Source of the DNA: Arthrobacter terrae
GTDB taxonomy: Bacteria; Actinomycetota; Actinomycetes; Actinomycetales; Micrococcaceae
Length of the DNA stretch: 64,000 nt
Assembly: GCF_015708085.1 (NCBI RefSeq)
Contig: NZ_JADNYM010000006.1
Coordinates: 62,001-126,000, forward strand
Direction of reading: 5' to 3'
Shown: positions 44,715 through 63,537 of the stretch, piece after piece
Layout: every line of letters begins with the position of its first letter
Position numbering within the stretch: the stretch's first letter is position 1
The notes under the pieces: model-generated
Told to the model about the DNA's origin: nothing
What the model saw: only the letters and a program-made list of their open reading frames with translations
The model's database searches: none
Position numbers and translations under genes: made by a program

Positions 44715-47318
44715 CTAGTAGATGCCGCCAAACTCCTCAAAAACGGCGGCGATGTCTTCCCCTCCGGAGGACGCTGCTATTCGGTCCTCTACGACGGTCG
44801 ATGCGCGGCCGGTGAAGTCCAGACCCTTCAGTGTTCCGTTCTTGTTCCGGATGACCGCGGTGACCCGGCGGAAGATCTCCTGGTGCTGGCGGGCGAACCG
44901 GGACAAAGCGGCCCACTTGCCCGGGGTGTCGCCGAGGCTATGGTTGTGCGGGTCCACGATGTCCACGACGATGTTCCCGTCGACCCGGTGGAAGAACAGG
45001 AAGTCCGGGTACATGGACTTGTCCACGGAACCCTCAATGTAGGACACGGCGAGACCGCCGGCGCCGGTTGGGTTCCGGTACCAGCCGATGAGGCTGGACT
45101 GGGCCAACTCCTTGGCGATAACCTCTTTCTCCCAGCCGGTCGCGACCATCGGAAAGTCTCCCTGGGCGTCGGCGAACAGATGGCCTTTGAAGGTTTCGAT
45201 GGGTGCGATCGTCTCCATAACTTTCCCTGCACCGTCTTTTCCTTTGACGATGGTCTGGGTTCGGGTGCGGACTCTCTCCGGGAGGGCGAACTCGCCGGGG
45301 ATGGGAACACCGTGCGGATGCCAGATCTCATCCAGTTCCGCGCGCACCTTGGTGTCCAGCCGGGATACGGCAGGGTTGAGCTGCTGGCGCCAGGAGTCGA
45401 TCAGGTTCGACGCAGACGCCTCAAGGTTGCGGATTACCTCCTCGTGCACGGACAGCGCCGAAAGGCGGACGACAGCTTCCTCGTGGTCCTGCAGCTGCGT
45501 GTATAACGCGTCGTAGAGCCAGGACCCGGCCGCGTCCGGCATCCGGTTCACAGCTTTATCTTTGAGCTCGCGCAGGTTTGTCGCTGACGTCCGAACGGTG
45601 TGGGAGGTGATGGTGGCCTGGTTGCCAGTGTATTGGTCATAGCCGACCCGGTCGTAGGTGACTTCGAGCAGCCCTCGGGCGTCCTCGTCGATGGTGGCCT
45701 GGAGCCGGATGTACTCCGCCAGTAGGATCGCTTTCACCCGGGCCTCCACCTCGTCGGAGAGCAGTACCCCTGGGTTGTCCGGGTTGCCGACCTGCAGCGA
45801 GTCCAACCGGGTGCCCAGGGCCGCCAGGCGGGCCGTCTCCGATGCGTAAGAGCGCTTCGGCTTGATCTCCTTTGGCAGCACCATCTCCCATAGCTCATCC
45901 GGGATACCGGCCACACGCGTGAAGTCGACGGGGTTGATTGAAACGGGCACCTCGACGTCGGCGCCGTCCACGAATGAACGAACGACCGTGGCGACCTCAG
46001 TCTTGTCGTAGTGGGGCAGGTAAAGCGAGACGGCGTTGAGCTCCTCCATATCTTCGGTCTCGATGCGGCCGGCGACCGGGGTGCGGACCATGCGCCCGAT
46101 CAGCTGCGCGATTGCGGTGTGTTCCTTGGCCGGACGCAGCGAGAGCATGACTTCGGCGCGCGGGCAGTCCCAGCCAGTGGTCAGTGCCGTCTTGAACAGC
46201 ACCACCTTGATGTGGTCGTTCTCCTGGATGTTCTGTGGCGCGACGTAGGGAATCATCCGGCCGTCGGGCAGGTCCAGGTGCTTTTTCTCACCGAACGCGT
46301 GCACGATGACCGGCTTCGCGCCGGTGACCTGCTGCAGACCGGTGGGCCACTCATCGGTGATGGAGAGAACCAGCTGCTGAATGGTCTTCTCGGAGACTTT
46401 GTCAGGCAGCTGAACGACCATGAGCGGCTTGACGCTGTGCTGGCCGTTGCTGGCCGCGTTCTCCTGGTCCCACAAGTTCGTGTACCGAACCAGGTCACGG
46501 ACGGCGGCGCGCAGCAGCGTGTCATCGGTGGGCTGGTTGTCGGTCGGGTGGTTGATCTGGATGAGGTCCTTGATCAGGCCCGAGGCGCGCACCTTGTCGG
46601 TGTCGGCGGCGACCTTGAACAGGGTCCGGTCGGCAGTGTTCGCGGACATGGCCTCCTCGAATTTCTTCGGGGTGGCCGAGATGCCGAGCATGATGCCGGC
46701 CGGGTCGTTCACGATGGTCCGGACGGTGCCGGAGCCGTCCTTGATGTCGACGGGGCCGCCGTCCAGGACGGTGCGCATGATCGTCTTCTTCTCTCCCGCC
46801 GTGACGGAGGAGCCACGGTGGGCTTCATCGACGATAAGCAGGAAGTCCCGGTTGAACTTGCGGACTGTGTTCCCGATCGTCTCCCACAGCGACCAGCGCC
46901 GCGAATCCCCTGTGTTTACGTGGGAGGTGGCGCCGGAGGCCAGACGCTGGATGTTCAGGAAGTGGATCTTGCCATACTCAAGGGTTTCCCGGTCGTAGTT
47001 CGCATCCAGCATCTCGATCTGCGAGGGCTGAATGAGCGAGGACGCCTTCAGGATCTTGTCCTTGCTCTGTTCGTTCAGTGCTGGGTCATCGGTCAGCCAC
47101 AACACCGTAAGGTACTTGTTCGGGGACTGGGTCCCGCCGCCGAACAGCAGCTTCTCCAGGACCGCGGTAGCGATGACGGTCTTGCCGGCACCGGTCGGGG
47201 CAGTCAGACCTACGGCAGTGCGCTTGCCGCGGCGGTCGAACATGCCCACAGACATGTTGAGATTGTCGACGACCTCTTCAGTGACGTCACGCTGGTAATC
47301 GGTGAGAGAGAATTTCAC
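44715..47318 (-). CDS. res: Type III restriction enzyme, Res subunit (DEAD/DEAH helicase-nuclease)
   Basis: 867 aa from a GTG overlapping the acetyltransferase stop (GTGA). Walker A is TGAGKTVIATAVLEKL at about residue 40, the DEAH box is LLIVDEAHRGSS near 165, and motif VI is AQLIGRMVRTP near 405. The C-terminus carries YPDFLFFHRVDGNIVVDIVDPH, corresponding to the nuclease position of Res subunits, but VD-x-VDPH replaces the expected E-x-K. It should translocate along DNA with Mod and cleave distant unmodified sites. Confidence 0.9.
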   Translation of the reverse strand: MKFSLTDYQRDVTEEVVDNLNMSVGMFDRRGKRTAVGLTAPTGAGKTVIATAVLEKLLFGGGTQSPNKYLTVLWLTDDPALNEQSKDKILKASSLIQPSQIEMLDANYDRETLEYGKIHFLNIQRLASGATSHVNTGDSRRWSLWETIGNTVRKFNRDFLLIVDEAHRGSSVTAGEKKTIMRTVLDGGPVDIKDGSGTVRTIVNDPAGIMLGISATPKKFEEAMSANTADRTLFKVAADTDKVRASGLIKDLIQINHPTDNQPTDDTLLRAAVRDLVRYTNLWDQENAASNGQHSVKPLMVVQLPDKVSEKTIQQLVLSITDEWPTGLQQVTGAKPVIVHAFGEKKHLDLPDGRMIPYVAPQNIQENDHIKVVLFKTALTTGWDCPRAEVMLSLRPAKEHTAIAQLIGRMVRTPVAGRIETEDMEELNAVSLYLPHYDKTEVATVVRSFVDGADVEVPVSINPVDFTRVAGIPDELWEMVLPKEIKPKRSYASETARLAALGTRLDSLQVGNPDNPGVLLSDEVEARVKAILLAEYIRLQATIDEDARGLLEVTYDRVGYDQYTGNQATITSHTVRTSATNLRELKDKAVNRMPDAAGSWLYDALYTQLQDHEEAVVRLSALSVHEEVIRNLEASASNLIDSWRQQLNPAVSRLDTKVRAELDEIWHPHGVPIPGEFALPERVRTRTQTIVKGKDGAGKVMETIAPIETFKGHLFADAQGDFPMVATGWEKEVIAKELAQSSLIGWYRNPTGAGGLAVSYIEGSVDKSMYPDFLFFHRVDGNIVVDIVDPHNHSLGDTPGKWAALSRFARQHQEIFRRVTAVIRNKNGTLKGLDFTGRASTVVEDRIAASSGGEDIAAVFEEFGGIY

Positions 47319-47908
47319 TTAGCAATAGCTCCTGTTTGCACTTTCGGCTGGACATGTATCGCCGGGGCGTCTGAGGTCAACCTCAGAAAGGCGACCCGGT
47401 CGTGGTGGCGGCTCAGCATATCCGGACCGAACCAGGCCTCCGATGCCCCTGGCCACTCCCACCGGATCTCGTGGCCGACGGGCGCGTAATCCCATCCCGC
47501 TTTTTCAAAAGCTTTGAAGGAGAGCTCACTCACCGCGGCAACTGCGATCTTGAATCCCGCCCGCCTGTAGGCCTCCACTGACGAGGCGATGAGCACCTGC
47601 GAGACACCGCGTCGACGCATTTCAGGGCTCACCGCAATCAGGTCAAGGTCGACAGCGGGCCCTGCCTCCAACAGAGGATTCGACCAGGCGTAGCCGACGA
47701 TGAGCCCTTTCTCTTCAGCCACCAGCACTACTTTTCGGGATGATGTCTGTGACGCAATTTCGCCTGCAACAAACTGCGTGTAAAAAGGTCCCTTCGGCCC
47801 GCTCAGCGTAGCCAGATGCGGAAAGTATCGGTCGAAAGAATTGATCCTCTCTGCGTCGCGCGGCTTCGCTTTCCGGACGAGGACTTGCCGAATTCGCTGA
47901 CTGGTCAA
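47315..47908 (-). CDS. GNAT-family N-acetyltransferase within the R-M operon
   Basis: 197 aa, apparently from a TTG 2 nt after the mod stop. GNAT motif A is DLIAVSPEMRRRGVSQVLI near residue 95, with acetyl-CoA pyrophosphate-loop residues R-R-R-G-V-S, followed by AYRRAGFKIAVAAVSELSFKAFEKAGW. It overlaps res by 4 nt, so mod, GNAT and res are one translationally coupled operon. The substrate is unknown; it could modify a restriction subunit, a nucleic acid base or a small molecule. Confidence 0.82.
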   Translation of the reverse strand: MTSQRIRQVLVRKAKPRDAERINSFDRYFPHLATLSGPKGPFYTQFVAGEIASQTSSRKVVLVAEEKGLIVGYAWSNPLLEAGPAVDLDLIAVSPEMRRRGVSQVLIASSVEAYRRAGFKIAVAAVSELSFKAFEKAGWDYAPVGHEIRWEWPGASEAWFGPDMLSRHHDRVAFLRLTSDAPAIHVQPKVQTGAIAK

Positions 47909-47910
47909 AG

Positions 47911-50169
47911 TCAGTCCTTCCTGTTGACCTGGAATGCTTCCAGGTAGCTTCCGTAGATCCGCTCGACGGTGATTCCACCGCGGAAGTGTGTTGCTGCTTC
48001 GTCGCCCTGGGCTTCGGAGTCGGTGACGATGAAGAGGTGGCTGATCGTGTGCTCTGCAGCGCTCAGTTTCTCCCCCAGCGCCTTGGCCCGGCCCGGGCTG
48101 AACAGCACCGCAGTGCGGCCGAACTCGGAGATTGCGAACCCGTCAGCCTTCGCGCCCGGGGTGAGTTCGACTGTCCCGCCGACGCCGCCGGCCTTGAGCC
48201 AGAACAAGCCGGCAAGGTCATTGAAGGCGCGGCCGGTGACGATCTCAGGCTCGTCCAAGTAGGTCAACTCGAAGAACGCGACGTTCGCGGCCAGACCGTC
48301 GGAGTAGGGACTACCGTCCTGACGTGTGCCGGTGACGACCGTTTCGAGGCGCGGCTTGGTGACGTGATGGAACACGCCCAGGGCCTCGTACTCATCGTCG
48401 CCTGGTTTGTGGCCGGACTTGCGCAGCTTCGTATCGTCAGCCTTGGCGAGCTCATTGTTGGTCACAAGGATCGCCTGGCGAGTGCCGCCGTCCTCGGCGT
48501 TCAGCCGGATGACCGCCTCGGCGGTGGTGCCGGAGCCGCCGAAGAAGTCCAAAATGACCGCGTCGCTGGGGGCGATCATTCGGAACCAGCGCATCAGGAC
48601 GTCATGGTTCTTGGGAAATGGGAATCGCTTGTCGCTCAGGATCTTTTCGAGGTGTTTTGTCGCAGCGGACCTGTCATGGTCGAATGCGGGGAGAGGAGAC
48701 TGATCGACAGTCTCGTGCAAGTACCTTTTGTACCGCGCGGTTGTCTTGTGGTCATTGCCGAACAGAATCCGTGACTCTTTCACCTTCTGGTGCATGACGT
48801 CCTGGGCGTATCGCCAGCCGTTGGGATGCATGGCGACGGGTTTGCCAGTTACGGGGTGGAGAAGGTCGTACCGCGACGTGCTGGTCGGGCCCGGTTTCGC
48901 GAGATCGCTCGAGCAGTAAACTTCACCGAACCTCACATCATCGACTCGGTCATAGAGCTTAAGGCCAGGGTTTGACTTAGCCGCATGGTCGCTCGGAATC
49001 GATTTCCACCATCGCCGCAGTTCAGCTGTCGCACGCTGGGCCGCAAAGGCTCGGATCTCATCAGCATCCCACGAGGGGACTGACTCTCCGAGAGGAGCAT
49101 CCAGATTGTTCAGCACCCACATCTGCTTGGTCTCGAATGTATCTGGATGAACCGTCAGGCAATTGGCCCAGTATTCCGGGGAGCTTTCGTATCTCTCGAC
49201 GATCTCGGCGAAAGCTGCTTCGATCGACGCCCTCCAGGCGATTTGTCCCATTTCCAGGACATCGTCGACCCCCGGCTTTGCTTCGACCCATCGACGCCCC
49301 GACTCCGTGAGCTTCACAGCATCCTTTGCATAGACCAACATGTAGTCAGTAGAGGGGGACGCGAATTGCGCGTCGTTCTTTCGACTTCCCTGCCAAACAA
49401 GGTTGGAGATGAAGTTGATCTCACCGAAGACTTCATCAGCGAGCATACGAAACCGGTGGTGCTCGTTGTCGTCAATAGCCATGATGATCACGCCGGTCGG
49501 TTTGAGGAGGGTCTTGGCGATGATGAGGCGCTTCTCCATGAAGGAGAGCCACTTGGAGTGCCGGTAGCCGTCCTTGGAGTCGACGTAGCGGTCGTTGTAC
49601 TTCCAGTCAGAATTTCCGGTGTTGTAGGGCGGATCGATGTAAATCAGGTCCACCTTGCCGGCGTGCGTGTATTGGAGCGCTTCGAGCGCGTGGTAATTCT
49701 CACCGTTGATGACCGTGTGCACGGGTGCATCCGGGTCGCCACGGCGGATCTCGGAGAGCTTACGCAGGCCGGGGTACATGATGTCGCCGAACTCTTTGGC
49801 GACAGTCAGGTCGGCGACAGGAAAGATCGCTTCGTCGCCCTCGGCGTCGACGAGCAGCGCGGTCGAACTCTGGCCATCTCCGTTGGCACGGTTGAGCTTG
49901 TGGACCCGGTAGAAGGCTGAGTCCTTGCGGGGCGTGCCGTTTACCGAGCTGATGACGACCTTGGAGCCGCGCTTCACGGCGTGCTTGGGCAGCCGGATAC
50001 CCTCGGGGTGGTGGCGTTCGAAGACGAGTCCGAACTGGCGTTGCATCCCGCCGATTTCACGGGCCAGGTTCCCGCGGAGCACCGGGTCGGTGATCTCCGC
50101 CAGATACCGGTCCAGGCTAGAGGTGGTTTCGGCGCTGGAGGGCGCGGACATGAGTGGTTGTGCGGTCAT
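47911..50169 (-). CDS. mod: Type III DNA methyltransferase, Mod subunit
   Basis: 752 aa starting MTAQPLMSAPSSAETTS, with the ATG 7 nt after a class A element. Beta-class order: the catalytic motif IV DPPYNTG at about residue 185, then the AdoMet-binding motif I FFGGSGTTAEAV near 540. The large region between them holds the target recognition domain. Predicted N6-adenine methylation of an asymmetric site. Two signals lie upstream, class A at 50177 and class B at 50237. A decayed copy of this gene is at 51933-52199. Confidence 0.9.
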   Translation of the reverse strand: MTAQPLMSAPSSAETTSSLDRYLAEITDPVLRGNLAREIGGMQRQFGLVFERHHPEGIRLPKHAVKRGSKVVISSVNGTPRKDSAFYRVHKLNRANGDGQSSTALLVDAEGDEAIFPVADLTVAKEFGDIMYPGLRKLSEIRRGDPDAPVHTVINGENYHALEALQYTHAGKVDLIYIDPPYNTGNSDWKYNDRYVDSKDGYRHSKWLSFMEKRLIIAKTLLKPTGVIIMAIDDNEHHRFRMLADEVFGEINFISNLVWQGSRKNDAQFASPSTDYMLVYAKDAVKLTESGRRWVEAKPGVDDVLEMGQIAWRASIEAAFAEIVERYESSPEYWANCLTVHPDTFETKQMWVLNNLDAPLGESVPSWDADEIRAFAAQRATAELRRWWKSIPSDHAAKSNPGLKLYDRVDDVRFGEVYCSSDLAKPGPTSTSRYDLLHPVTGKPVAMHPNGWRYAQDVMHQKVKESRILFGNDHKTTARYKRYLHETVDQSPLPAFDHDRSAATKHLEKILSDKRFPFPKNHDVLMRWFRMIAPSDAVILDFFGGSGTTAEAVIRLNAEDGGTRQAILVTNNELAKADDTKLRKSGHKPGDDEYEALGVFHHVTKPRLETVVTGTRQDGSPYSDGLAANVAFFELTYLDEPEIVTGRAFNDLAGLFWLKAGGVGGTVELTPGAKADGFAISEFGRTAVLFSPGRAKALGEKLSAAEHTISHLFIVTDSEAQGDEAATHFRGGITVERIYGSYLEAFQVNRKD

Positions 50170-50176
50170 GCCGTCA

Positions 50177-50206
50177 ATGTGTGCGGCGTACTCCGCTGCA
50201 CTCTCC
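50177..50206 (-). promoter_or_regulatory. Class A promoter-like element of the R-M operon
   Basis: GGAGAG, 14 nt, CCGCACACAT, 7 nt, ATG at 50169. Confidence 0.62.
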
Positions 50207-50235
50207 GCTGTGTTCGTCTGGATGCTCACACCAGG

Positions 50236-50249
50236 AAACATGCGTAGAT
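50236..50249 (-). promoter_or_regulatory. Class B motif of the R-M operon
   Basis: Minus-strand AATCTACGCATGTT, about 50 nt upstream of the class A 10-mer: the only case with both signals in tandem. Confidence 0.45.
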
Positions 50250-50334
50250 TTCTGACGCCGGTCCGCGGGGGAAGGCTGCGCATAAGACTCGACGCTCATC
50301 GTCCTGATGCAAATGGTCCCTGCCAGTTGGGCCG

Positions 50335-54959: not shown

Positions 54960-55311
54960 CCTGCACCGCACTGTTGTGACGACATCTGCCCAGGAGTGCT
55001 CCTAGTCCGATGGGAAAGACCCGGGGCGAACATCATGGGTCTTTCCCATCGGCGCCACGGCCCCCGCTCAGTCCTCGGGTTCGACCGCGGTCCGGAATCG
55101 TTGGGCAACCGGGTAGCTGCTTTTGCGCCCGTGCCCGACAAGCGGCGGAGCGGACGGGTACTCGACGCCGCCCCTCACAGCTGACCTGTGACGCCGGCTG
55201 ACTTGCCTCCCATGCGTTCCATTGATCGGTGGCTTCAACCTTTTCGACCCGGCTGGTCAAAACCTTGGGCATCTTTGGGACGTTCCGATTGACCGGGTTG
55301 CAGATCAATTT
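54960..55311. other. Intergenic region ending in the CRISPR-flanking homology block
   Basis: No gene seen. An inverted repeat of GATGGGAAAGACCC / GGGTCTTTCCCATC at 55010-55041 may terminate transcription of the upstream nuclease gene. From 55206 to 55311 it matches the block at 51738-51842. Confidence 0.6.
55010..55041. terminator. Perfect inverted repeat, candidate terminator
   Basis: GATGGGAAAGACCC and GGGTCTTTCCCATC, 14 bp each, about 50 nt downstream of the nuclease gene; no strong T run. Confidence 0.5.
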
Positions 55312-55582
55312 GGAAGCACCCCCGCGCGTGCGGGGAAAGGCGGAGAAACTCGGAAGGAATCAGTCCGTCCTTGGAAAACCCCGCGCGTGCGGGGAAAAGT
55401 TCGCGGAGGCGAGGGCGGCCTTCTCTTCCAGGGAAACACCCCCGCGCGTGCGGGGAAAAGTTCGCGGAGGCGAGGGCGGCCTTCTCTTCCAGGGAAACAC
55501 CCCCGCGCGTGCGGGGAAAAGTCCACGGCCAGATCCGTCTCGTAACGGCCCAGGGAAACACCCCCGCGCGTGCGGGGAAAAG
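55312..55582 (-). CRISPR. Type I-E CRISPR array, five repeats and four spacers
   Basis: Repeats at 55312-55340, 55373-55399, 55432-55460, 55493-55521 and 55554-55582, mostly 29 nt with the GCGCG/CGGGG palindrome; all spacers are 32 nt. Spacers 2 (55400) and 3 (55461) are identical. The two left repeats are the most degenerate, so the leader is probably to the right and transcription leftward (minus strand, TTTTCCCCGCACGCGC). No cas gene is in the window. Confidence 0.93.
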
Positions 55583-56960: not shown

Positions 56961-56999
56961 GGTTGCTCCTTGAAGTGTGCGGATGTGCTTCTACCTCTT

Positions 57000-57009
57000 A
57001 TGTGTGCGG
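57000..57009 (-). promoter_or_regulatory. Class A 10-mer
   Basis: Exact CCGCACACAT, 39 nt before the ATG at 56960; a second degenerate copy (CCGCACACTT) is at 56973-56982. Confidence 0.5.
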
Positions 57010-57059
57010 CACATCCGCAATGCCACCTCATCCCTGGAGATGCCGACCGGTCACTTCGC

Positions 57060-57089
57060 GTGGACGGGGATGTGGTCCGCCGCACACAT
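57060..57089 (+). promoter_or_regulatory. Class A promoter-like element
   Basis: Weak box GTGGAC, 14 nt, CCGCACACAT, 7 nt, ATG at 57097. Confidence 0.58.
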
Positions 57090-57096
57090 CCAGGGC

Positions 57097-57414
57097 ATGA
57101 AATCCTTTACGTGGACTCTCGCGCCGGCCCGGTTGGCCCCGGCATCGCTTGACCCGCAGCCGGTCAAAAACGAGAACTCTCCCGGCTTCCCCACGTCACT
57201 TGTGGTTGCCCGCGCCTATGCCGCGGAGATCAAAGCAGACCGGGCCGCGCGTGTTCCGTGGCGGAAGATCGCCGAGAAGATGTCCATCTCACGGATCGAA
57301 GCGATTCGGCTGGCGCACAGCCTGGATGAAGTGCTCGACGAAATCCGTGAAGAGACGTCTCGGCAGGCCGAGCTGAAACAGCACATGAACCCGGTCCGCG
57401 GCTTAGGCTGGTGA
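57097..57414 (+). CDS. Small protein with a helix-turn-helix-like segment
   Basis: 105 aa starting MKSFTWTLAPARLAP, ATG 7 nt after a class A element. The segment ARVPWRKIAEKMSISRIEAIRLAHSLDEVLDEI (helix-turn-helix pattern) could bind DNA. The next gene starts 1 nt after its stop, so they form an operon with the 57416 and 57946 genes. Confidence 0.64.
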   Translation: MKSFTWTLAPARLAPASLDPQPVKNENSPGFPTSLVVARAYAAEIKADRAARVPWRKIAEKMSISRIEAIRLAHSLDEVLDEIREETSRQAELKQHMNPVRGLGW

Positions 57415-57415
57415 C

Positions 57416-57949
57416 ATGCCACCGACACCATCTCCCACCCCCGTCGATGTCTTAGTCCACTCCGGTCCCGCCGAATGGTGGCAGATTCTCGCCGCCTTGG
57501 GGCCCCTGGCTGTGTTGCTCGGTGCGGGCATCGCCGGCTACTTTGCCTGGCGAGGCCTGCGGCAGAAGGCGGCAGCGGACAACCGTGCGGAGTGGTGGAA
57601 GCGGACCCAATGGGCGCTGGATTACGTCTACTCCGGGGACGCGAAGCGCGGCACGGCCGGACTGAAAGTCCTCCAGGTGTTGGGCGAGAGCGAGCTGGCT
57701 GGCCCTGGTGAACTCGCGGTCCTTGAAGCTGCCTGGAAGACGTCACTTGGGGAAGCCGAGAAGAAATTGGCTCTGAGGGTCAATGTGGAGCCAGAGGACG
57801 ACAGGTATTCGGAAAGAATCCTCGAATACCTTGACGCACAGGTAAAAGGTAGGGACCAGCCGTTGCAAGTTTTCGATCAACCGGGGGTGGACGATGAGCC
57901 CGACCCGCGGGACAATAAAGAAGACGACAAGCCCGAAGGAGGAGCATGA
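57416..57949 (+). CDS. Single-pass membrane protein
   Basis: 177 aa. A Pro/Thr N-terminus, one TM helix (LAALGPLAVLLGAGIAGYFAW), then a cytosolic helical domain with Trp-rich NRAEWWKRTQWALDYVYSGD and a disordered acidic tail (DDEPDPRDNKEDDKPEG). This matches the small membrane proteins that accompany phage or plasmid regulators. Coupled to the upstream helix-turn-helix gene and overlapping the next gene (ATGA). Confidence 0.66.
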   Translation: MPPTPSPTPVDVLVHSGPAEWWQILAALGPLAVLLGAGIAGYFAWRGLRQKAAADNRAEWWKRTQWALDYVYSGDAKRGTAGLKVLQVLGESELAGPGELAVLEAAWKTSLGEAEKKLALRVNVEPEDDRYSERILEYLDAQVKGRDQPLQVFDQPGVDDEPDPRDNKEDDKPEGGA

Positions 57950-58379: not shown

Positions 58380-58510
58380 ATCTCCCCCTAAAAAGATGTG
58401 GACGTGGCTGTGCATAGGTGCCCCGGGTTCGCACCCGGCCCGGCCTCTCCACACATTAGCCGCCGAACGCCAATTGGGATAGAGGGTCTATTAGTCTGTC
58501 GCAACGCGAC

Positions 58511-58540
58511 GGGGAGGACAGTGCAGATCGCCGCACACAT
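58511..58540 (+). promoter_or_regulatory. Class A promoter-like element of the helicase operon
   Basis: GGGGAG, 14 nt, CCGCACACAT, then a 36-nt leader to the GTG at 58577. Confidence 0.63.
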
Positions 58541-58576
58541 GATGGGCATCTGATCTGCACTGCCTAAGGAAACCCC

Positions 58577-60253
58577 GTGACCAAGACTCTCCGTGACTAT
58601 CAAGCCACCGCCATTGCCGACGGGCTGGCAACGTTCACCGAACATGACCGCGCCCACTTTGTTTTGGCCTGCGGAGCCGGAAAGACCCTCATTTCGCTCC
58701 GGCTGCAGGAAGCCGTGAACCCCGGTACCGTGCTGGCGCTGTTCCCCACCTTGGCGTTGCTTCAGCAGACCTACGACGAGTGGTCTGCCGATGCTGAAGC
58801 GCCCTTCGATGCCTACGCGTTCTGCTCCCGTACCCGCGGAGCCGGCAGCGATGACCTGGACTCATCCCAGCTGCACCTACCGCACACGACCGACGTGAAG
58901 GTTGTCGCCGGATTCCTGGCTGCCCCGTCATCGAAGCCGAAAATCCTGTTCGCCACTTACCAGTCCTCCCCGAAGCTGGCGGCACTGCACACCGACCACG
59001 GGGTCGGTGCATGGGATCTGGCCATCTTTGACGAAGCGCACCGCACCGCCGGCAGGGCCGGTAAGAAGTTCTCCGCCGCCTTGCACGACCACACCATCCC
59101 GGTCCACAAGCGGGCCTTCTTCACCGCCACACCTGTCACATTCACGAGCCGGAACAGCCCGGACGGGGAGAACATCCCGGCGCACTCCATGGATGACCTC
59201 ACGGTTTACGGACCCCGCGTCTGCACCGTCCATTTCAGCTATCTTCAGGAGCGCGGCTACCTTTCCGATTACCAGGTCGCCGTCATGGTCCTCACCAACA
59301 AAGACGTCGCTGACATGATCAAAGACAACCCGGACATCGCCTCGTACCAGACCGTCACTCGCCGCGGATCGCACGGGCGCACTGAGACCGTCAACATGGG
59401 GGCCCGCGACGTTGCTGTCGCCGCCGCCTTGTCCAAAGCCATCCGGCAGGCCGACCTGCGCTCCATCGCTGCCTTTCATAGCTCGATCGCCAAAAGCCAG
59501 GGATTCGCAATGATGCTGCCCTCCATTCTTGGGGAGCTGGCGCCGGAGGAGCGTCCGCTGGGCTGGGTCACCGCCGACGCGGTCTGGGGTACCCAGGACG
59601 CGGCAGAGCGGGATGAGATCATCCACCGGCTGTCCGTGGACCCCGCCACTACCGACATCCAGGTTGTCTCCAATGCGAGGATCCTCTCCGAGGGTGTCAA
59701 CATCCCTTCCCTGGACGCGATCCTGTTCGCGGATGCGAAATCCTCGAAGGTGGACATCACACAGCAGGTCGGCCGGGCGCTGCGGTTGAACGAGAACCGT
59801 GACGCACCCTCGCTGGTCATCATCCCGATCATCGTTCCCGCCGAAGGTTACAACCCAGAGGATGACGGGTTCAACGATGATGACCTGGCCACCGGCAACT
59901 ACGACACCGTCGTCAACGTCCTGGGCTCCCTGGCCGATAACGACCCGCAGTTCCAGGCCCGCCTGAACGCCGAGCGCGATGTCACGCTGGCCACCGAGAC
60001 TCCTGATGCCGAAGGAATGGTCGGCTCAGACAGCTACCGCTCCGACATTGACGCGGACGGCAAATGGCTGGACGGCAAGCTGGTCTTCATCAATCAGACC
60101 GGCGAAAACAAGATCCAGTTCCGGCGCATCATCAACTCCGTCTCCGTGGACGTGCTCAAGGAATCCAGCGATCTCTGGGACTGGTGGGGGAACTTCTACG
60201 CACTCAAAGCACTCATGGAAGAAGAGCGGTCCGCAGCCGCTGAGGCCGCCTGA
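58577..60253 (+). CDS. DEAD/DEAH-box (SF2) helicase lacking its HA domain
   Basis: 558 aa from a GTG with Shine-Dalgarno AAGGAAACCCC. Motifs: LRDYQATAI (Q-like), Walker A ACGAGKT near residue 34, DEAH box FDEAHRTAG near 150, SAT-like FTATPVTF near 180, and C-terminal NARILSEGVNIPSLDAILFAD and QQVGRALRLN (motifs V and VI). Actinobacterial relatives normally carry helicase-associated (HA) repeats at the C-terminus; here the two following genes encode only HA repeats. Presumably a DNA translocase or helicase that works with them. Confidence 0.9.
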   Translation: MTKTLRDYQATAIADGLATFTEHDRAHFVLACGAGKTLISLRLQEAVNPGTVLALFPTLALLQQTYDEWSADAEAPFDAYAFCSRTRGAGSDDLDSSQLHLPHTTDVKVVAGFLAAPSSKPKILFATYQSSPKLAALHTDHGVGAWDLAIFDEAHRTAGRAGKKFSAALHDHTIPVHKRAFFTATPVTFTSRNSPDGENIPAHSMDDLTVYGPRVCTVHFSYLQERGYLSDYQVAVMVLTNKDVADMIKDNPDIASYQTVTRRGSHGRTETVNMGARDVAVAAALSKAIRQADLRSIAAFHSSIAKSQGFAMMLPSILGELAPEERPLGWVTADAVWGTQDAAERDEIIHRLSVDPATTDIQVVSNARILSEGVNIPSLDAILFADAKSSKVDITQQVGRALRLNENRDAPSLVIIPIIVPAEGYNPEDDGFNDDDLATGNYDTVVNVLGSLADNDPQFQARLNAERDVTLATETPDAEGMVGSDSYRSDIDADGKWLDGKLVFINQTGENKIQFRRIINSVSVDVLKESSDLWDWWGNFYALKALMEEERSAAAEAA

Positions 60254-60292
60254 TATGGGTGTCATCTGCTGGACAGGGAAAGTCAAGAGCCG

Positions 60293-61420
60293 ATGAGGAC
60301 CCGGTTGTCGCCGGCTTCGCGGAGCAGGGACCAGCTCATCGCTTGGGCCGGCGGCCAGAAAGACTCGAAACTGTCCGCTGCCCAGAGCGAAGCGATGGAC
60401 TACGTTTATCCGGTGTGGCGTCTTACTAACGAAGAAGTCTGGAATGTGAGGCTGCGCTCTGTCGTTGATTTCGTTGCCATCCACAGCCGCTTCCCTCGCA
60501 CCGGATGTCGTGACGCAGCCGAACGATTCCTCGGAACTTGGCTTTCCAACCATAGGTCGATGGGCGAAAGAATCCTTCCGCACCGCAGGACATTGCTCGA
60601 TGGGAGACTTCCGGGATGGAACAAATCAGCCAAGGACGTCTGGCACGCGCGACTGGATGAGGTTTGTGTCATGGTTGAGACTCTTGGCCGTATTCCGCGT
60701 AGCACCGAAAAGGAACTCCGGCACCGAACCGCCTCGACCTGGCTGAAGGCCCACCGCTCCCGCGCCGACGACGATTGGCGTGTTGTGACACTGAACGAGA
60801 GGCTTCCCGGTTGGGACGAATCCCCCGACAAGCTATGGGATGACCAGCTTGCCGCCGTCGTGGCCTTCGTGGCCGCGAACGGGAGCCTCCCTCACCAGAG
60901 AGAGAAGGATGGAAAAAGCAGGACGCTTGGCAGCTGGATCTCCACCCAACGTAAGGCTGGAGCTCTGAGCGAATATCGGCGGGCAGAGCTGGACCGGCAG
61001 CTGCCTGGCTGGGCCAAGGACTTCAACGACGTGTGGGAGGATTCGCTGAAATACGTCACTGCGTTTTATAACCACCACGGCAGGTTTCCGCGTGTGGGGT
61101 CCTCGGACCCCATCGAGGTGAAGAACGCCAGGTGGATCGTCATGCAACGCAAACTGGCGCGCAGCATGTCACCGGAGCGACTCAAAAAGCTCGATGAACA
61201 ATTGCCCCAGTGGCGGACAAAGCGGAACGAGAGGTGGCGGCAAAACCTCGGCGCGGTCGCCGACTATTTTGCGACTCACGGGGGCCCGCCATCCTCCCGG
61301 TCTAAAGATCGGGACGTCGCATACCTCGGGCGCTGGTGGCAGCATCGCAATGATGTACAACAGAGGAACCCGGAGCGCGACGCCTTGATGGATGAGCTCA
61401 CCCCTGGGTGGCGGTGCTAG
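60293..61420 (+). CDS. Helicase-associated (HA) repeat protein, about five repeats
   Basis: 375 aa. The N-terminus (RSRDQLIAWAGGQKDSKLSAAQSEAMDYVYPVWR) is shared with the next gene. Then HA-type units of about 70 aa follow, each with W---L--V--FV---G-FPR, -L--W----R, LS--R---LD--LPGW. HA domains are helical and thought to bind DNA. 39 nt after the helicase stop and in the same direction, so an operon with it. No catalytic motif. Confidence 0.8.
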   Translation: MRTRLSPASRSRDQLIAWAGGQKDSKLSAAQSEAMDYVYPVWRLTNEEVWNVRLRSVVDFVAIHSRFPRTGCRDAAERFLGTWLSNHRSMGERILPHRRTLLDGRLPGWNKSAKDVWHARLDEVCVMVETLGRIPRSTEKELRHRTASTWLKAHRSRADDDWRVVTLNERLPGWDESPDKLWDDQLAAVVAFVAANGSLPHQREKDGKSRTLGSWISTQRKAGALSEYRRAELDRQLPGWAKDFNDVWEDSLKYVTAFYNHHGRFPRVGSSDPIEVKNARWIVMQRKLARSMSPERLKKLDEQLPQWRTKRNERWRQNLGAVADYFATHGGPPSSRSKDRDVAYLGRWWQHRNDVQQRNPERDALMDELTPGWRC

Positions 61421-61422
61421 CC

Positions 61423-61452
61423 GGGAAGACAAGGAGCCGTTGCCGCACACAT
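61423..61452 (+). promoter_or_regulatory. Class A promoter-like element
   Basis: GGGAAG, 14 nt, CCGCACACAT, 7 nt, ATG at 61460; it gives the second HA gene its own start signal. Confidence 0.62.
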
Positions 61453-61459
61453 GAGGATC

Positions 61460-63190
61460 ATGAGCGTCGACACCCTCCCCCGCACCCGGAGTAAGGACCA
61501 ACTCCTGACGTGGGCGAACCGCCAAAAGAACGCTGCCCTGTCCACAGCCCAGGCTGCGGCCTTGGATTCGGTCTACCCGGATTGGCGCAAAACCAGTAAC
61601 GGTGTCTGGTTCACCAATCTGGAAGCCGTGGAGGCATTCGTTGCGGTCCACGGGTTCTTCCCCCGCTCGGCGGTCCAAGACCCTGCCGAGAAAGTGCTCG
61701 GCATTTGGATTGCCACCCAACGCTACCGGGTCAGCCAGCTTTCTGCCGACCGGATCAAGCTCCTCGAGGAGCGGTTGCAGGGCTGGAACAAGTCCAAGGA
61801 CGAAGCCTGGAAGGAGCGCATGGACGAGGTCTGCGCAGTAATCGCAGCCCTCGGCTACATCCCCAACACCACTGAGAAGGAAGCCGAGGCCAGACGGGCA
61901 GGGGTGTGGCTGAAGCGGCACAGCAAGATGCCGGCCACGGACCCTAAAGTTGGCGTCCTCAACGACCGGATCCCGGGCTGGAATGACCGGAACTTTGAGA
62001 ACATGTGGCGGGTGAACGTGGACGCACTGGAAGCTTTCGCGAACCTGCATGGGCGCTTGCCTACCCAGTATGAAAATGATCCCGACGATCGCCGACTTGG
62101 CGTATGGCTGAACGGCCGCCGGAGGGAGGGCGACAAGCTACGAGCCAACCGTCGGGACGAACTCGCCCTGCGCGCTCCAGGGTGGGACAGGACCGCGGAA
62201 GACCGGTGGAATGAGAGCCTTGATTTTGCAGCCTGGTACCTCCAGGAGCACGGCAGGTTCCCGCGTGAACACTCACAGGATCCTGAGGTCGCGGCTTCGT
62301 CCCGGTGGATCGGCACACAGCGCCGGGAACAGCACCATCCGGAAACCCGAAAAGCTGCTCTCGATGCCAAGTTGCCCGGATGGCACGAGCGCCCTGCCGA
62401 CAAGTGGACCGATACGCTCGACTATGTGGCTGCCTTCGTGGCTGAGAAAGGCCGTCTGCCGGCAAGAACATCCGAAGAAGAAAAGGAGCGCTGGGCAGGA
62501 GAGTGGATTCGACGCCAACGCAAAGGCACCGGGATGACCCCGGAACGTGAGGCCCGACTCGATGATCGGTTACCGCGCTGGCGCGAAGCCAGTGAGGACG
62601 CCTGGTTCCGGAAGCTTGACGACTACGTGGCGTTCTACAAAGCCAACGGGCGCCGTCCCAGCGCGGTCGCCGCTGACAACACCGAGCGCACCATGGGTGT
62701 CTGGTATCGGAACACCAATGCAGCGAAACTGACGGAGGCCCGTTCGGCGGCCCTGACCGCGGCGGACATCGGAGAGCGTCGAAGTCAGGACCAGATCTGG
62801 GCGGACACCCTGGATCTCGTGGCAACGTTCTATGCCGTTCATGGGCGCTTCCCGACCGGATCCGGAAAGGAACCGGGTGAGCGCCCGCTCTCAGTGTGGT
62901 TGTCCAACCACCGTCGCACCACGGAAAGGGTCGCACCGGAACGCCGTGCCCTCATGACCGCACGCATCCCGGGCTGGGACCTCACGCTGGAGGACATCTG
63001 GATGCTCAAGCTGCAGGCCTGCGTTGACTTCGTTCAGACCCACGGCCGCCTGCCCACGATGGGGAAGAACGTCCCGGATGCGCAGAAAAGAGCTGCCGTC
63101 TGGATTTCCGATCAGCGTAAGCCCAGGAACCGTTCCAGACTGGATCGGGTCGCCATCCTTAACGAACGCCTCCCCGGCTGGGGTGACTGA
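61460..63190 (+). CDS. Helicase-associated (HA) repeat protein, about eight repeats
   Basis: 576 aa starting MSVDTLPRTRSKDQLLTWA, ATG exactly 7 nt after a class A element. It shares the N-terminal module of the preceding product and then has about eight HA units ending in LPGW-like turns (LQGW, IPGW, APGW, LPGW, LPRW, ...). Almost pure HA array, with no enzyme domain. Probably arose by duplication and expansion of the 375-aa protein and should form an extended DNA-binding solenoid. Confidence 0.8.
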   Translation: MSVDTLPRTRSKDQLLTWANRQKNAALSTAQAAALDSVYPDWRKTSNGVWFTNLEAVEAFVAVHGFFPRSAVQDPAEKVLGIWIATQRYRVSQLSADRIKLLEERLQGWNKSKDEAWKERMDEVCAVIAALGYIPNTTEKEAEARRAGVWLKRHSKMPATDPKVGVLNDRIPGWNDRNFENMWRVNVDALEAFANLHGRLPTQYENDPDDRRLGVWLNGRRREGDKLRANRRDELALRAPGWDRTAEDRWNESLDFAAWYLQEHGRFPREHSQDPEVAASSRWIGTQRREQHHPETRKAALDAKLPGWHERPADKWTDTLDYVAAFVAEKGRLPARTSEEEKERWAGEWIRRQRKGTGMTPEREARLDDRLPRWREASEDAWFRKLDDYVAFYKANGRRPSAVAADNTERTMGVWYRNTNAAKLTEARSAALTAADIGERRSQDQIWADTLDLVATFYAVHGRFPTGSGKEPGERPLSVWLSNHRRTTERVAPERRALMTARIPGWDLTLEDIWMLKLQACVDFVQTHGRLPTMGKNVPDAQKRAAVWISDQRKPRNRSRLDRVAILNERLPGWGD

Positions 63191-63333
63191 ACCACCTGGC
63201 GGCCGGGCGGGTGATTCATCTGGGAACACAATCTCTTGCTGTGCCGGTGTTTGACACATAGGCTCATCCCGTGGGCGGCAGGGACGGCATTCCGAGCAGC
63301 GGGACCGACCAGACGCCCGTGAAGGAAACAGTA

Positions 63334-63537
63334 ATGGCAACAGGTACGGTCAAGTGGTTCAACGCCGAAAAGGGTTTCGGGTTCATCGCCCCCGACGACG
63401 GAAGCGCTGACGTGTTCGCACACTATTCGGCGATCGCTTCCAGCGGTTACCGCTCACTGGATGAGAACCAGAAGGTGCAGTTCGACGTCACTCAGGGCCC
63501 TAAAGGACCCCAGGCGGAGAACATCACCGCTCTCTGA
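63334..63537 (+). CDS. Cold-shock protein, CspA family
   Basis: 67 aa starting [17 protein letters not shown], full length for the family. RNP1 (KGFGFIAP) and RNP2 (DVFAHYSAI) are intact, so it should bind single-stranded nucleic acid. ATG has AAGGAAACAGTA. TTGACA at 63251 suggests an ordinary promoter with a leader of moderate length. A good terminator follows. Confidence 0.95.

What the first reader, a model, noticed from the sequence alone, without database searches (positions are those of the whole stretch)
58511..63190. Helicase plus two stand-alone HA-repeat arrays
A SF2 helicase without HA domains is followed by two genes encoding only HA repeats (about five and eight units) that share an N-terminal module (RS-DQL--WA--QK---LS-AQ). 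In known actinobacterial proteins HA repeats are fused to the helicase. A split, expanded DNA-binding array next to restriction and CRISPR loci suggests an undescribed defence or DNA-processing system in which long HA solenoids load or target the helicase.
Basis: partly seen in the sequence, partly recalled or inferred. Interest (0 to 1): 0.8.

Follow-up and report, generated by a model that had tools for sequence, protein, structure and literature searches.

The report
Split DNA motor with two readers
On what is probably a large plasmid of an actinobacterium, an ATP-driven DNA motor that is a single protein in its relatives is coded as three: the motor and two strings of repeated, probably DNA-binding units; it is an unusual variant of a known protein type, not a new kind of system.

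Summary
In detail: a 558-aa SF2 motor without HA units (58577-60253) is followed by two genes encoding only HA units, 5 and 8, each opening with a half unit. The motor groups with fused helicase-HA proteins and resembles the motor of Type ISP restriction enzymes, so the separation is probably derived. Three of six fused relatives put to Pfam also carry an Mrr nuclease. Similar leaders and intact frames despite about 40% identity argue against an artefact. The locus is cargo in a variable slot of a plasmid family of about 400 kb (pACHL01, pYJN5-1, pPA-B-2242); those three carry other genes there, and a sister species keeps a decayed end of the second array. I found the three-gene order nowhere else, within capped searches. 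Stand-alone HA arrays occur on related plasmids, mostly without such a motor, so 'HA is always fused' is wrong and obligatory helicase loading is doubtful. In HA units helix 2 varies between units but is kept between matched proteins of different replicons, as expected of a recognition helix; this is the most interesting general lead. Defence is plausible by analogy, untested. New variant of a known kind.

The parts
58519..58562 (+). Perfect 11-bp inverted repeat (22-nt spacer) just upstream of the motor gene; possible operator or leader hairpin
   Evidence: RNA fold of 58500-58600 z-score -3.07, 1 of 200 shuffles folds as well; the only such pair in the genome with a 9-bp core pattern. Function not tested.
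58577..60253 (+). SF2 motor (GTG start), Type ISP-like helicase core with motifs GAGKT, DEAH, TATP, QQVGRALR; no HA unit; acidic (pI 4.9)
60276..60295 (+). Leader and start codon of array 1, similar to the leader of array 2 (GGGAAAGTCAAGAGCCG / GGGAAGACAAGGAGCCG)
   Evidence: 33 of 5000 shuffles score as high
60293..61420 (+). HA array 1: half unit (helices 2-3) plus 5 HA units; basic (pI 10.0)
61423..61442 (+). Leader of array 2, with ribosome-binding-like AAGGAG at 61431-61436
61451..63190 (+). HA array 2: half unit plus 8 HA units; basic (pI 9.6)
56977..57949 (+). Two conserved plasmid genes (145- and 177-aa frames) that bound the slot on the left
63331..63537 (+). Cold-shock gene (CSD 7.5e-32), right border of the slot, conserved on three related plasmids

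Best explanation
The locus is a derived, three-piece version of a known protein type: a Type ISP-like ATP-driven double-stranded-DNA motor joined to an array of HA units. SHOWN by sequence: the motor groups with fused helicase-HA proteins; its HA part is coded by separate genes, present twice (5.5 and 8.5 units); the locus is cargo in a variable slot of a large plasmid. INFERRED: HA arrays bind DNA, probably with sequence preference through helix 2, and stand where the methyltransferase and target-recognition domain stand in Type ISP enzymes; the acidic motor works with either of the two basic arrays as separate subunits, so that one motor can be brought to two different sets of DNA sites and then track along or remodel DNA there. 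The most likely benefit is protection of the plasmid or host against other DNA, or local DNA processing on the plasmid; no nuclease is fused here, so cutting, if any, would need a partner.
For: Motor: LlaGI 1.6e-47, LlaBIII 3.9e-47 over residues 3-464; catalytic motifs intact. Tree of 22 motors: window with fused L030, L034, L037, L082 at 99/97 (L037 and L082 are near-identical); all 11 fused proteins plus the window against 10 Type ISP at 100/100 (midpoint root). Fused relatives have 4-10 HA units; 3 of 6 put to Pfam (L035, L040, L087) also have Mrr_cat_2, so nuclease-motor-HA parallels the nuclease-ATPase-coupler-MTase-TRD order of Type ISP (PMC4872093, passages seen). DNA-reader role: HA units are also fused to sigma-70 factors and follow HTH matches that stay below Pfam's cut-offs; six variable helix-2 positions are kept between matched proteins (mean identity 0.76) more than other variable positions (0.60; 0.58 within helices), reached by 0 of 20,000 label shuffles and by a fraction of 0.0002; helix 2 is net positive in 13 of 13 window units, arrays pI 10.0 and 9.6, motor pI 4.9. 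Tight same-strand spacing, 39 and 30 nt. Maintained genes: the arrays are only 39-43% identical yet both frames are intact.
Against: No experiment and no solved relative of HA found by sequence or by fold at E <= 0.001. Physical interaction of motor and arrays is not shown: the fold of a read-through chain across the motor's end had pLDDT 34-46 in that region, and the motor's tail matches helix 1 of fused first units no better than chance (117 of 2000 shuffles). HA arrays occur on related plasmids without this motor. The helix-2 test uses 48 unit pairs that share proteins, so its p-values are optimistic. Only one locus has this order. The window motor has a long branch (1.28).
Confidence: 0.5

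Rival explanations
1. The arrays are independent plasmid DNA-binding proteins (regulators or DNA-packing proteins) that merely share a transcript with an orphan motor; there is no joint machine.
For: HA-bearing genes recur on the same plasmid family: by my count of the rows, 6 and 3 frames on five plasmids (three of these frames are of the sigma-factor type, the rest not all examined); four of the five have no motor of this family and the fifth has a Type ISP-size one far from its HA genes. The nearest relative of the arrays, a six-unit array on contig C45 (34%), has no such motor within the 20 kb fetched. On pROB01 a five-unit HA-only gene follows a response-regulator gene.
Against: Only these two arrays open with a half unit among the stand-alone arrays profiled (the other case is a frame-broken pMyong1 gene), and they sit directly behind a motor whose relatives are fused to HA.
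Confidence: 0.28
2. A decaying locus: a nonsense change split a fused helicase-HA protein, and what is seen is a stage of loss.
For: All three genes share one frame; a sister species (G001) lacks 58558-63026 and keeps only the degraded end of array 2.
Against: Array leaders are similar (33 of 5000 shuffles), which suggests separate starts before the duplication; frames of 375 and 579 codons stayed open through divergence to 39-43% identity; third-position G+C 71-80%; motor motifs intact.
Confidence: 0.12
3. A plasmid upkeep or repair motor (RadD- or XPB-like role), not defence.
For: Weak profile matches to RadD (1.7e-9) and XPB (1.9e-4), far below their cut-offs; locus on a large plasmid.
Against: Type ISP motors match far better (1e-47); absent from three related plasmids at the same slot, so not needed for upkeep.
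Confidence: 0.1

Closest known systems
Fused helicase-HA proteins on actinobacterial plasmids (e.g. WP_143542582.1, Rhodococcus sp. YL-1 pYLL2; L030)
   Same: Same motor family (40% identity, 1.6e-88) with a tandem HA array (10 units)
   Different: One polypeptide and one array; here three genes, no HA unit in the motor protein, two arrays
Mrr-helicase-HA proteins (L035, L040, L087)
   Same: Type ISP-like motor plus HA array
   Different: They carry an N-terminal Mrr nuclease and are fused; the window motor starts at the helicase core
Type ISP restriction-modification enzymes LlaGI and LlaBIII
   Same: Motor core, E about 1e-47
   Different: No nuclease, methyltransferase or TRD found here; HA arrays instead, on separate chains
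Stand-alone HA arrays on pMK12478, pACHL01, pYJN5-1, pROB01 and Arthrobacter plasmids
   Same: HA-only proteins of 2 to 8 units
   Different: No half unit at the start in those profiled; no motor of this family on pMK12478, pACHL01 or the two Arthrobacter plasmids

Membership tests
Type ISP restriction-modification enzyme | SF2 helicase-like ATPase of the LlaGI/LlaBIII type | tested here: met
   1.6e-47 and 3.9e-47 over residues 3-464
Type ISP restriction-modification enzyme | N-terminal Mrr nuclease on the same chain | tested here: not met
   protein begins at the helicase core; Pfam finds no nuclease
Type ISP restriction-modification enzyme | Methyltransferase and target-recognition domain on the same chain | tested here: not met
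   Pfam finds none in any of the three proteins
Fused helicase-HA protein | Motor of the fused clade | tested here: met
   tree, 99/97 with four fused proteins
Fused helicase-HA protein | Motor and HA units on one chain | tested here: not met
   stop codon at 60251-60253, separate starts
HA (PF03457) repeat protein | HA units above the curated cut-off | tested here: met
   74.7 and 130.8 bits against 28.4
Known anti-phage defence system (PADLOC) | Match of the gene set to a described system | tested here: inconclusive
   motor matches part of Type IIG and Type I enzyme models (5.5e-70, 1.5e-47); array 1 only Cas3-HD at 0.009, array 2 nothing
Sequence-specific DNA-binding repeat array | Repeat units that each contact defined bases | not testable with these tools
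   only indirect support from helix-2 variation

The most novel reading that the evidence does not exclude
HA arrays are modular DNA readers in which helix 2 of each unit sets the sequence preference, and this locus is a motor with exchangeable readers: one ATP-driven translocase that can be paired with a 5-unit or an 8-unit array through the open half unit at each array's start. The same readers are spread over plasmid motors, nucleases and sigma factors.
Probability: 0.18. Interest if true: 0.85.

Novelty: new variant of a known kind. Interest (0 to 1): 0.45.

Why it matters
HA repeats recur on actinobacterial plasmids (array 2 alone matches 35 plasmid records), yet eight text searches of the library, on HA domains, Arthrobacter plasmids, Type ISP enzymes and telomere helicases, listed no paper whose title or abstract start deals with what bacterial HA units bind; subscription papers are mostly missing there. 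If helix 2 reads DNA bases, HA arrays would be a further repeat-based class of DNA readers, and a natural split motor with two arrays would be a convenient system to test it. It would also show a restriction-like motor with its recognition part as a separate subunit, as in Type I systems (recalled).

Tried and rejected
Assembly or frameshift artefact: rejected on the long intact frames, similar array leaders and divergence of the arrays; not excluded is one old nonsense change.

Split inside the first HA unit (motor ending with helix 1, arrays beginning with helices 2-3): attractive because in fused proteins the helix behind the motor is helix 1 of the first unit, and half units at the array starts are well supported. 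But the motor's own tail does not match that helix better than chance (117 of 2000 shuffles with the fused profile, 1587 of 2000 with the Type ISP profile) and the read-through fold had low confidence there. Kept only as a possibility.

Known fold for HA: Foldseek against PDB gave 0 matches at E <= 0.001; a second alignment gave best Z 4.9, within noise for helical repeats. Against viral models, 11 matches at E <= 0.001, mostly named helicases or HA proteins.

Phage origin: no array 2 match at E <= 1e-5 in 50,697 phage records; the motor matches 85 records, 81 of them Synechococcus phages at about 25%, the best two Listeria phages at 31%.

Conserved three-gene neighbourhoods: not found. 23 other motor places in two genome searches all have frames of 752 aa or more (E <= 1e-55 and 1e-58, 3 candidates scored per genome). 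In the 59 relatives two partial matches lie in 511-aa frames with only the first half of the motor (L018, L021). A motor annotated in three pieces on an Ornithinimicrobium plasmid was checked and has no HA within the 13 kb fetched. Of 711 plasmid records with the motor only 40 were listed. The genome-contig scan gave one weak locus.

Trees: the first motor tree lost 8 of 11 fused proteins to my search pattern and was redone; the redo leaves out L125 and L126; L080, whose motor is truncated, was not put into either.

Helix-2 test: first on 4 families (no test), then on 27 pairs (0.61 against 0.47, p 0.0003), then on 20 pairs after I dropped 7: one pair of halves of a broken gene and six with identity below 0.50. 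One of the 20 (L007/L063) is a pair of duplicates within the window's own genome; orthology of the others was judged by identity alone. The three runs point the same way.
Full report
WHAT IS THERE. Three genes on the + strand, in one reading frame, with gaps of 39 and 30 nt: a 558-aa SF2 motor, a 375-aa protein and a 579-aa protein. Pfam assigns ResIII and Helicase_C to the first and, convincingly, only HA (PF03457) to the others. An HA profile built here gives 5 and 8 full units. The two half units are 57% identical. The first two units of one array are most like, or as like as any, the first two of the other (42% and 43%; the first also matches the seventh at 42%), so the arrays look like duplicates that later diverged and one of which grew.

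WHERE THE MOTOR COMES FROM. The motor's best solved relatives are the Type ISP restriction enzymes LlaGI and LlaBIII. In a tree of 22 motors it falls among proteins that carry HA units on the same chain, next to Rhodococcus pYLL2 and mycobacterial relatives (99/97), and away from ten Type ISP enzymes (100/100). Its end branch is long (1.28) and the root is a midpoint, so the exact neighbour is unsure. Fused relatives have 4 to 10 HA units. Of six fused proteins put to Pfam, three have an Mrr nuclease in front and three have none. Thus a nuclease-motor-HA order exists, which parallels nuclease-ATPase-coupler-methyltransferase-TRD in Type ISP enzymes (architecture from passages of PMC4872093). 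If the root lies between the two groups, the fused state surrounds the window motor and the separate state is derived.

IS THE SEPARATION REAL. An old nonsense change cannot be excluded as the origin, but several points speak for working genes: the short leaders in front of the two array genes are similar (33 of 5000 shuffles reach the score), which suggests that the start region was duplicated with the gene; the frames are long and open although the arrays are only 39-43% identical; third-position G+C is 80, 71 and 74%; the motor's motifs are intact. I tested whether the motor's tail is the missing first helix of the arrays' half unit. In fused relatives that helix follows the motor directly, but the window's tail does not score above chance (117 of 2000 shuffles) and the fold of the read-through chain was poor there. 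Docking through the half unit is therefore only an idea.

WHERE IT SITS. The window lies on a 191,881-base contig of a 4.4-Mb genome of unnamed taxon. Stretches of 19 to 43 kb of pYJN5-1, pPA-B-2242, pACHL01 and the plasmid of Arthrobacter sp. zg-Y1110 hold many of its genes in similar order, so it is very probably part of a large plasmid of that family; I did not compare the whole plasmids. The locus occupies a slot between two conserved genes (56977-57949) and a cold-shock gene (63331-63537). At the same slot pPA-B-2242 has one small gene, pYJN5-1 three further genes of unknown function, pACHL01 a Thg1-family gene and small genes. In G001, a species of the same genus, the segment corresponding to 58558-63026 is missing; the last HA unit remains, with two of its near-invariant residues changed, followed by the cold-shock gene; little else within about 18 kb either side in G001 matches the parts of this contig compared. 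So the locus is dispensable cargo and older than this remnant. The methyltransferase and helicase genes at 44715-50283 are shared with pPA-B-2242 (63.8 and 73.6% identical) and do not belong to this locus.

HOW COMMON. Array 2 matches 35 of 72,556 plasmid records at E <= 1e-5 and the motor 711. I searched 12 plasmid records for HA; 11 have it, but they had been picked through HA or motor matches. On the five Micrococcaceae plasmids of this kind I count 7, 8, 7, 6 and 3 HA-bearing frames from the rows of that call. Four of those five have no motor of this family at E <= 1e-10; the fifth has one in a 1612-aa, Type ISP-size frame far from its HA genes. The window's own genome has HA at ten separate places by my count. 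In contrast, the three-gene order was not found elsewhere: array 1 has no match at E <= 1e-30 outside its own genome in 395 genomes of the family, one other genome at E <= 1e-15 among 296 of the class, and 23 other motor places in two searches all lie in frames of at least 752 aa. These searches score only a few candidates per genome.

WHAT HA UNITS DO. HA units occur with motors and nucleases, with sigma-70 factors, with or without a helicase in front, and behind HTH matches below Pfam's cut-offs. All of this fits DNA binding. In 20 pairs of matched proteins (48 unit pairs; 19 pairs from different replicons or genomes, one pair of duplicates in the window's own genome), six positions of helix 2 (30, 31, 34, 37, 38, 41 of the 64-column profile) differ between units of one protein but are kept between matched units, more than other variable positions are (0.76 against 0.60, or 0.58 within helices only). 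Around them W35, Q39 and R40 are nearly fixed. Helix 2 is positively charged in all 13 window units. This is what one expects of a recognition helix; it is not proof, the pairs are not independent, and orthology was inferred from identity alone.

MOST LIKELY WORKING. The motor burns ATP to move along or remodel double-stranded DNA (by homology). The arrays bind DNA, perhaps at chosen sequences (inferred). Motor and arrays act together, with either array bringing the motor to its sites (inferred, not shown). Benefit: defence or local DNA processing (inferred by analogy to Type ISP and Mrr-helicase-HA proteins). The rival that the arrays act alone is serious, because such arrays do live without this motor on the same kind of plasmid.

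VERDICT. A real and unusual arrangement, best described as a derived split variant of helicase-HA proteins. The helix-2 pattern is the part with wider interest.

Noticed in passing
L059:4641-7700 (own genome, contig C45): One 1019-aa protein joins a ResIII-type helicase, a sigma-70 factor (regions 1.2, 2, 3, 4) and one HA unit. Frames of 1016 and 1045 aa with related HA units (73-78% in the HA unit) occur on pACHL01 and pYJN5-1 but were not put to Pfam; pPA-B-2242 has sigma-70 plus HA without the helicase.
   Followed up: partly
L003, L007, L008, L024, L063: Small proteins of 208-237 aa with two HA units (and, for L003-L026); three of four put to Pfam (L003, L007, L008, not L024) have a weak N-terminal HTH match; several copies in the window's genome, some near contig ends.
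   Followed up: partly
window 55308-55582: Five CRISPR-like repeats, about 61-nt spacing, two of the spacers identical; cas genes were not searched for.
   Followed up: no
window 58519-58562: Perfect 11-bp inverted repeat before the motor gene, strong RNA hairpin (z -3.07), the only such pair in the genome.
   Followed up: partly
window 44715-50283: Helicase, small frame and N6/N4 methyltransferase on the minus strand, shared with pPA-B-2242; probably a restriction-type system of the plasmid.
   Followed up: partly
L028/L060 (contig C45), L084, L085: A tandem pair of HA genes (four and two units) found on contig C45, pACHL01 and pYJN5-1; on the two annotated plasmids thioredoxin and methyltransferase genes are close by.
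   Followed up: partly
L033 and L081: The 8-unit HA gene of pMK12478 corresponds on pMyong1 to two overlapping frames annotated as two HA genes, which looks like a frameshift.
   Followed up: no
L085:1603-5163: A Helicase_C_2 protein of pYJN5-1 with a homing-endonuclease-like stretch at residues 349-404.
   Followed up: no
L144:4680-5837 (pROB01): A five-unit HA-only gene directly follows a response-regulator gene within a phosphate-transport region.
   Followed up: no
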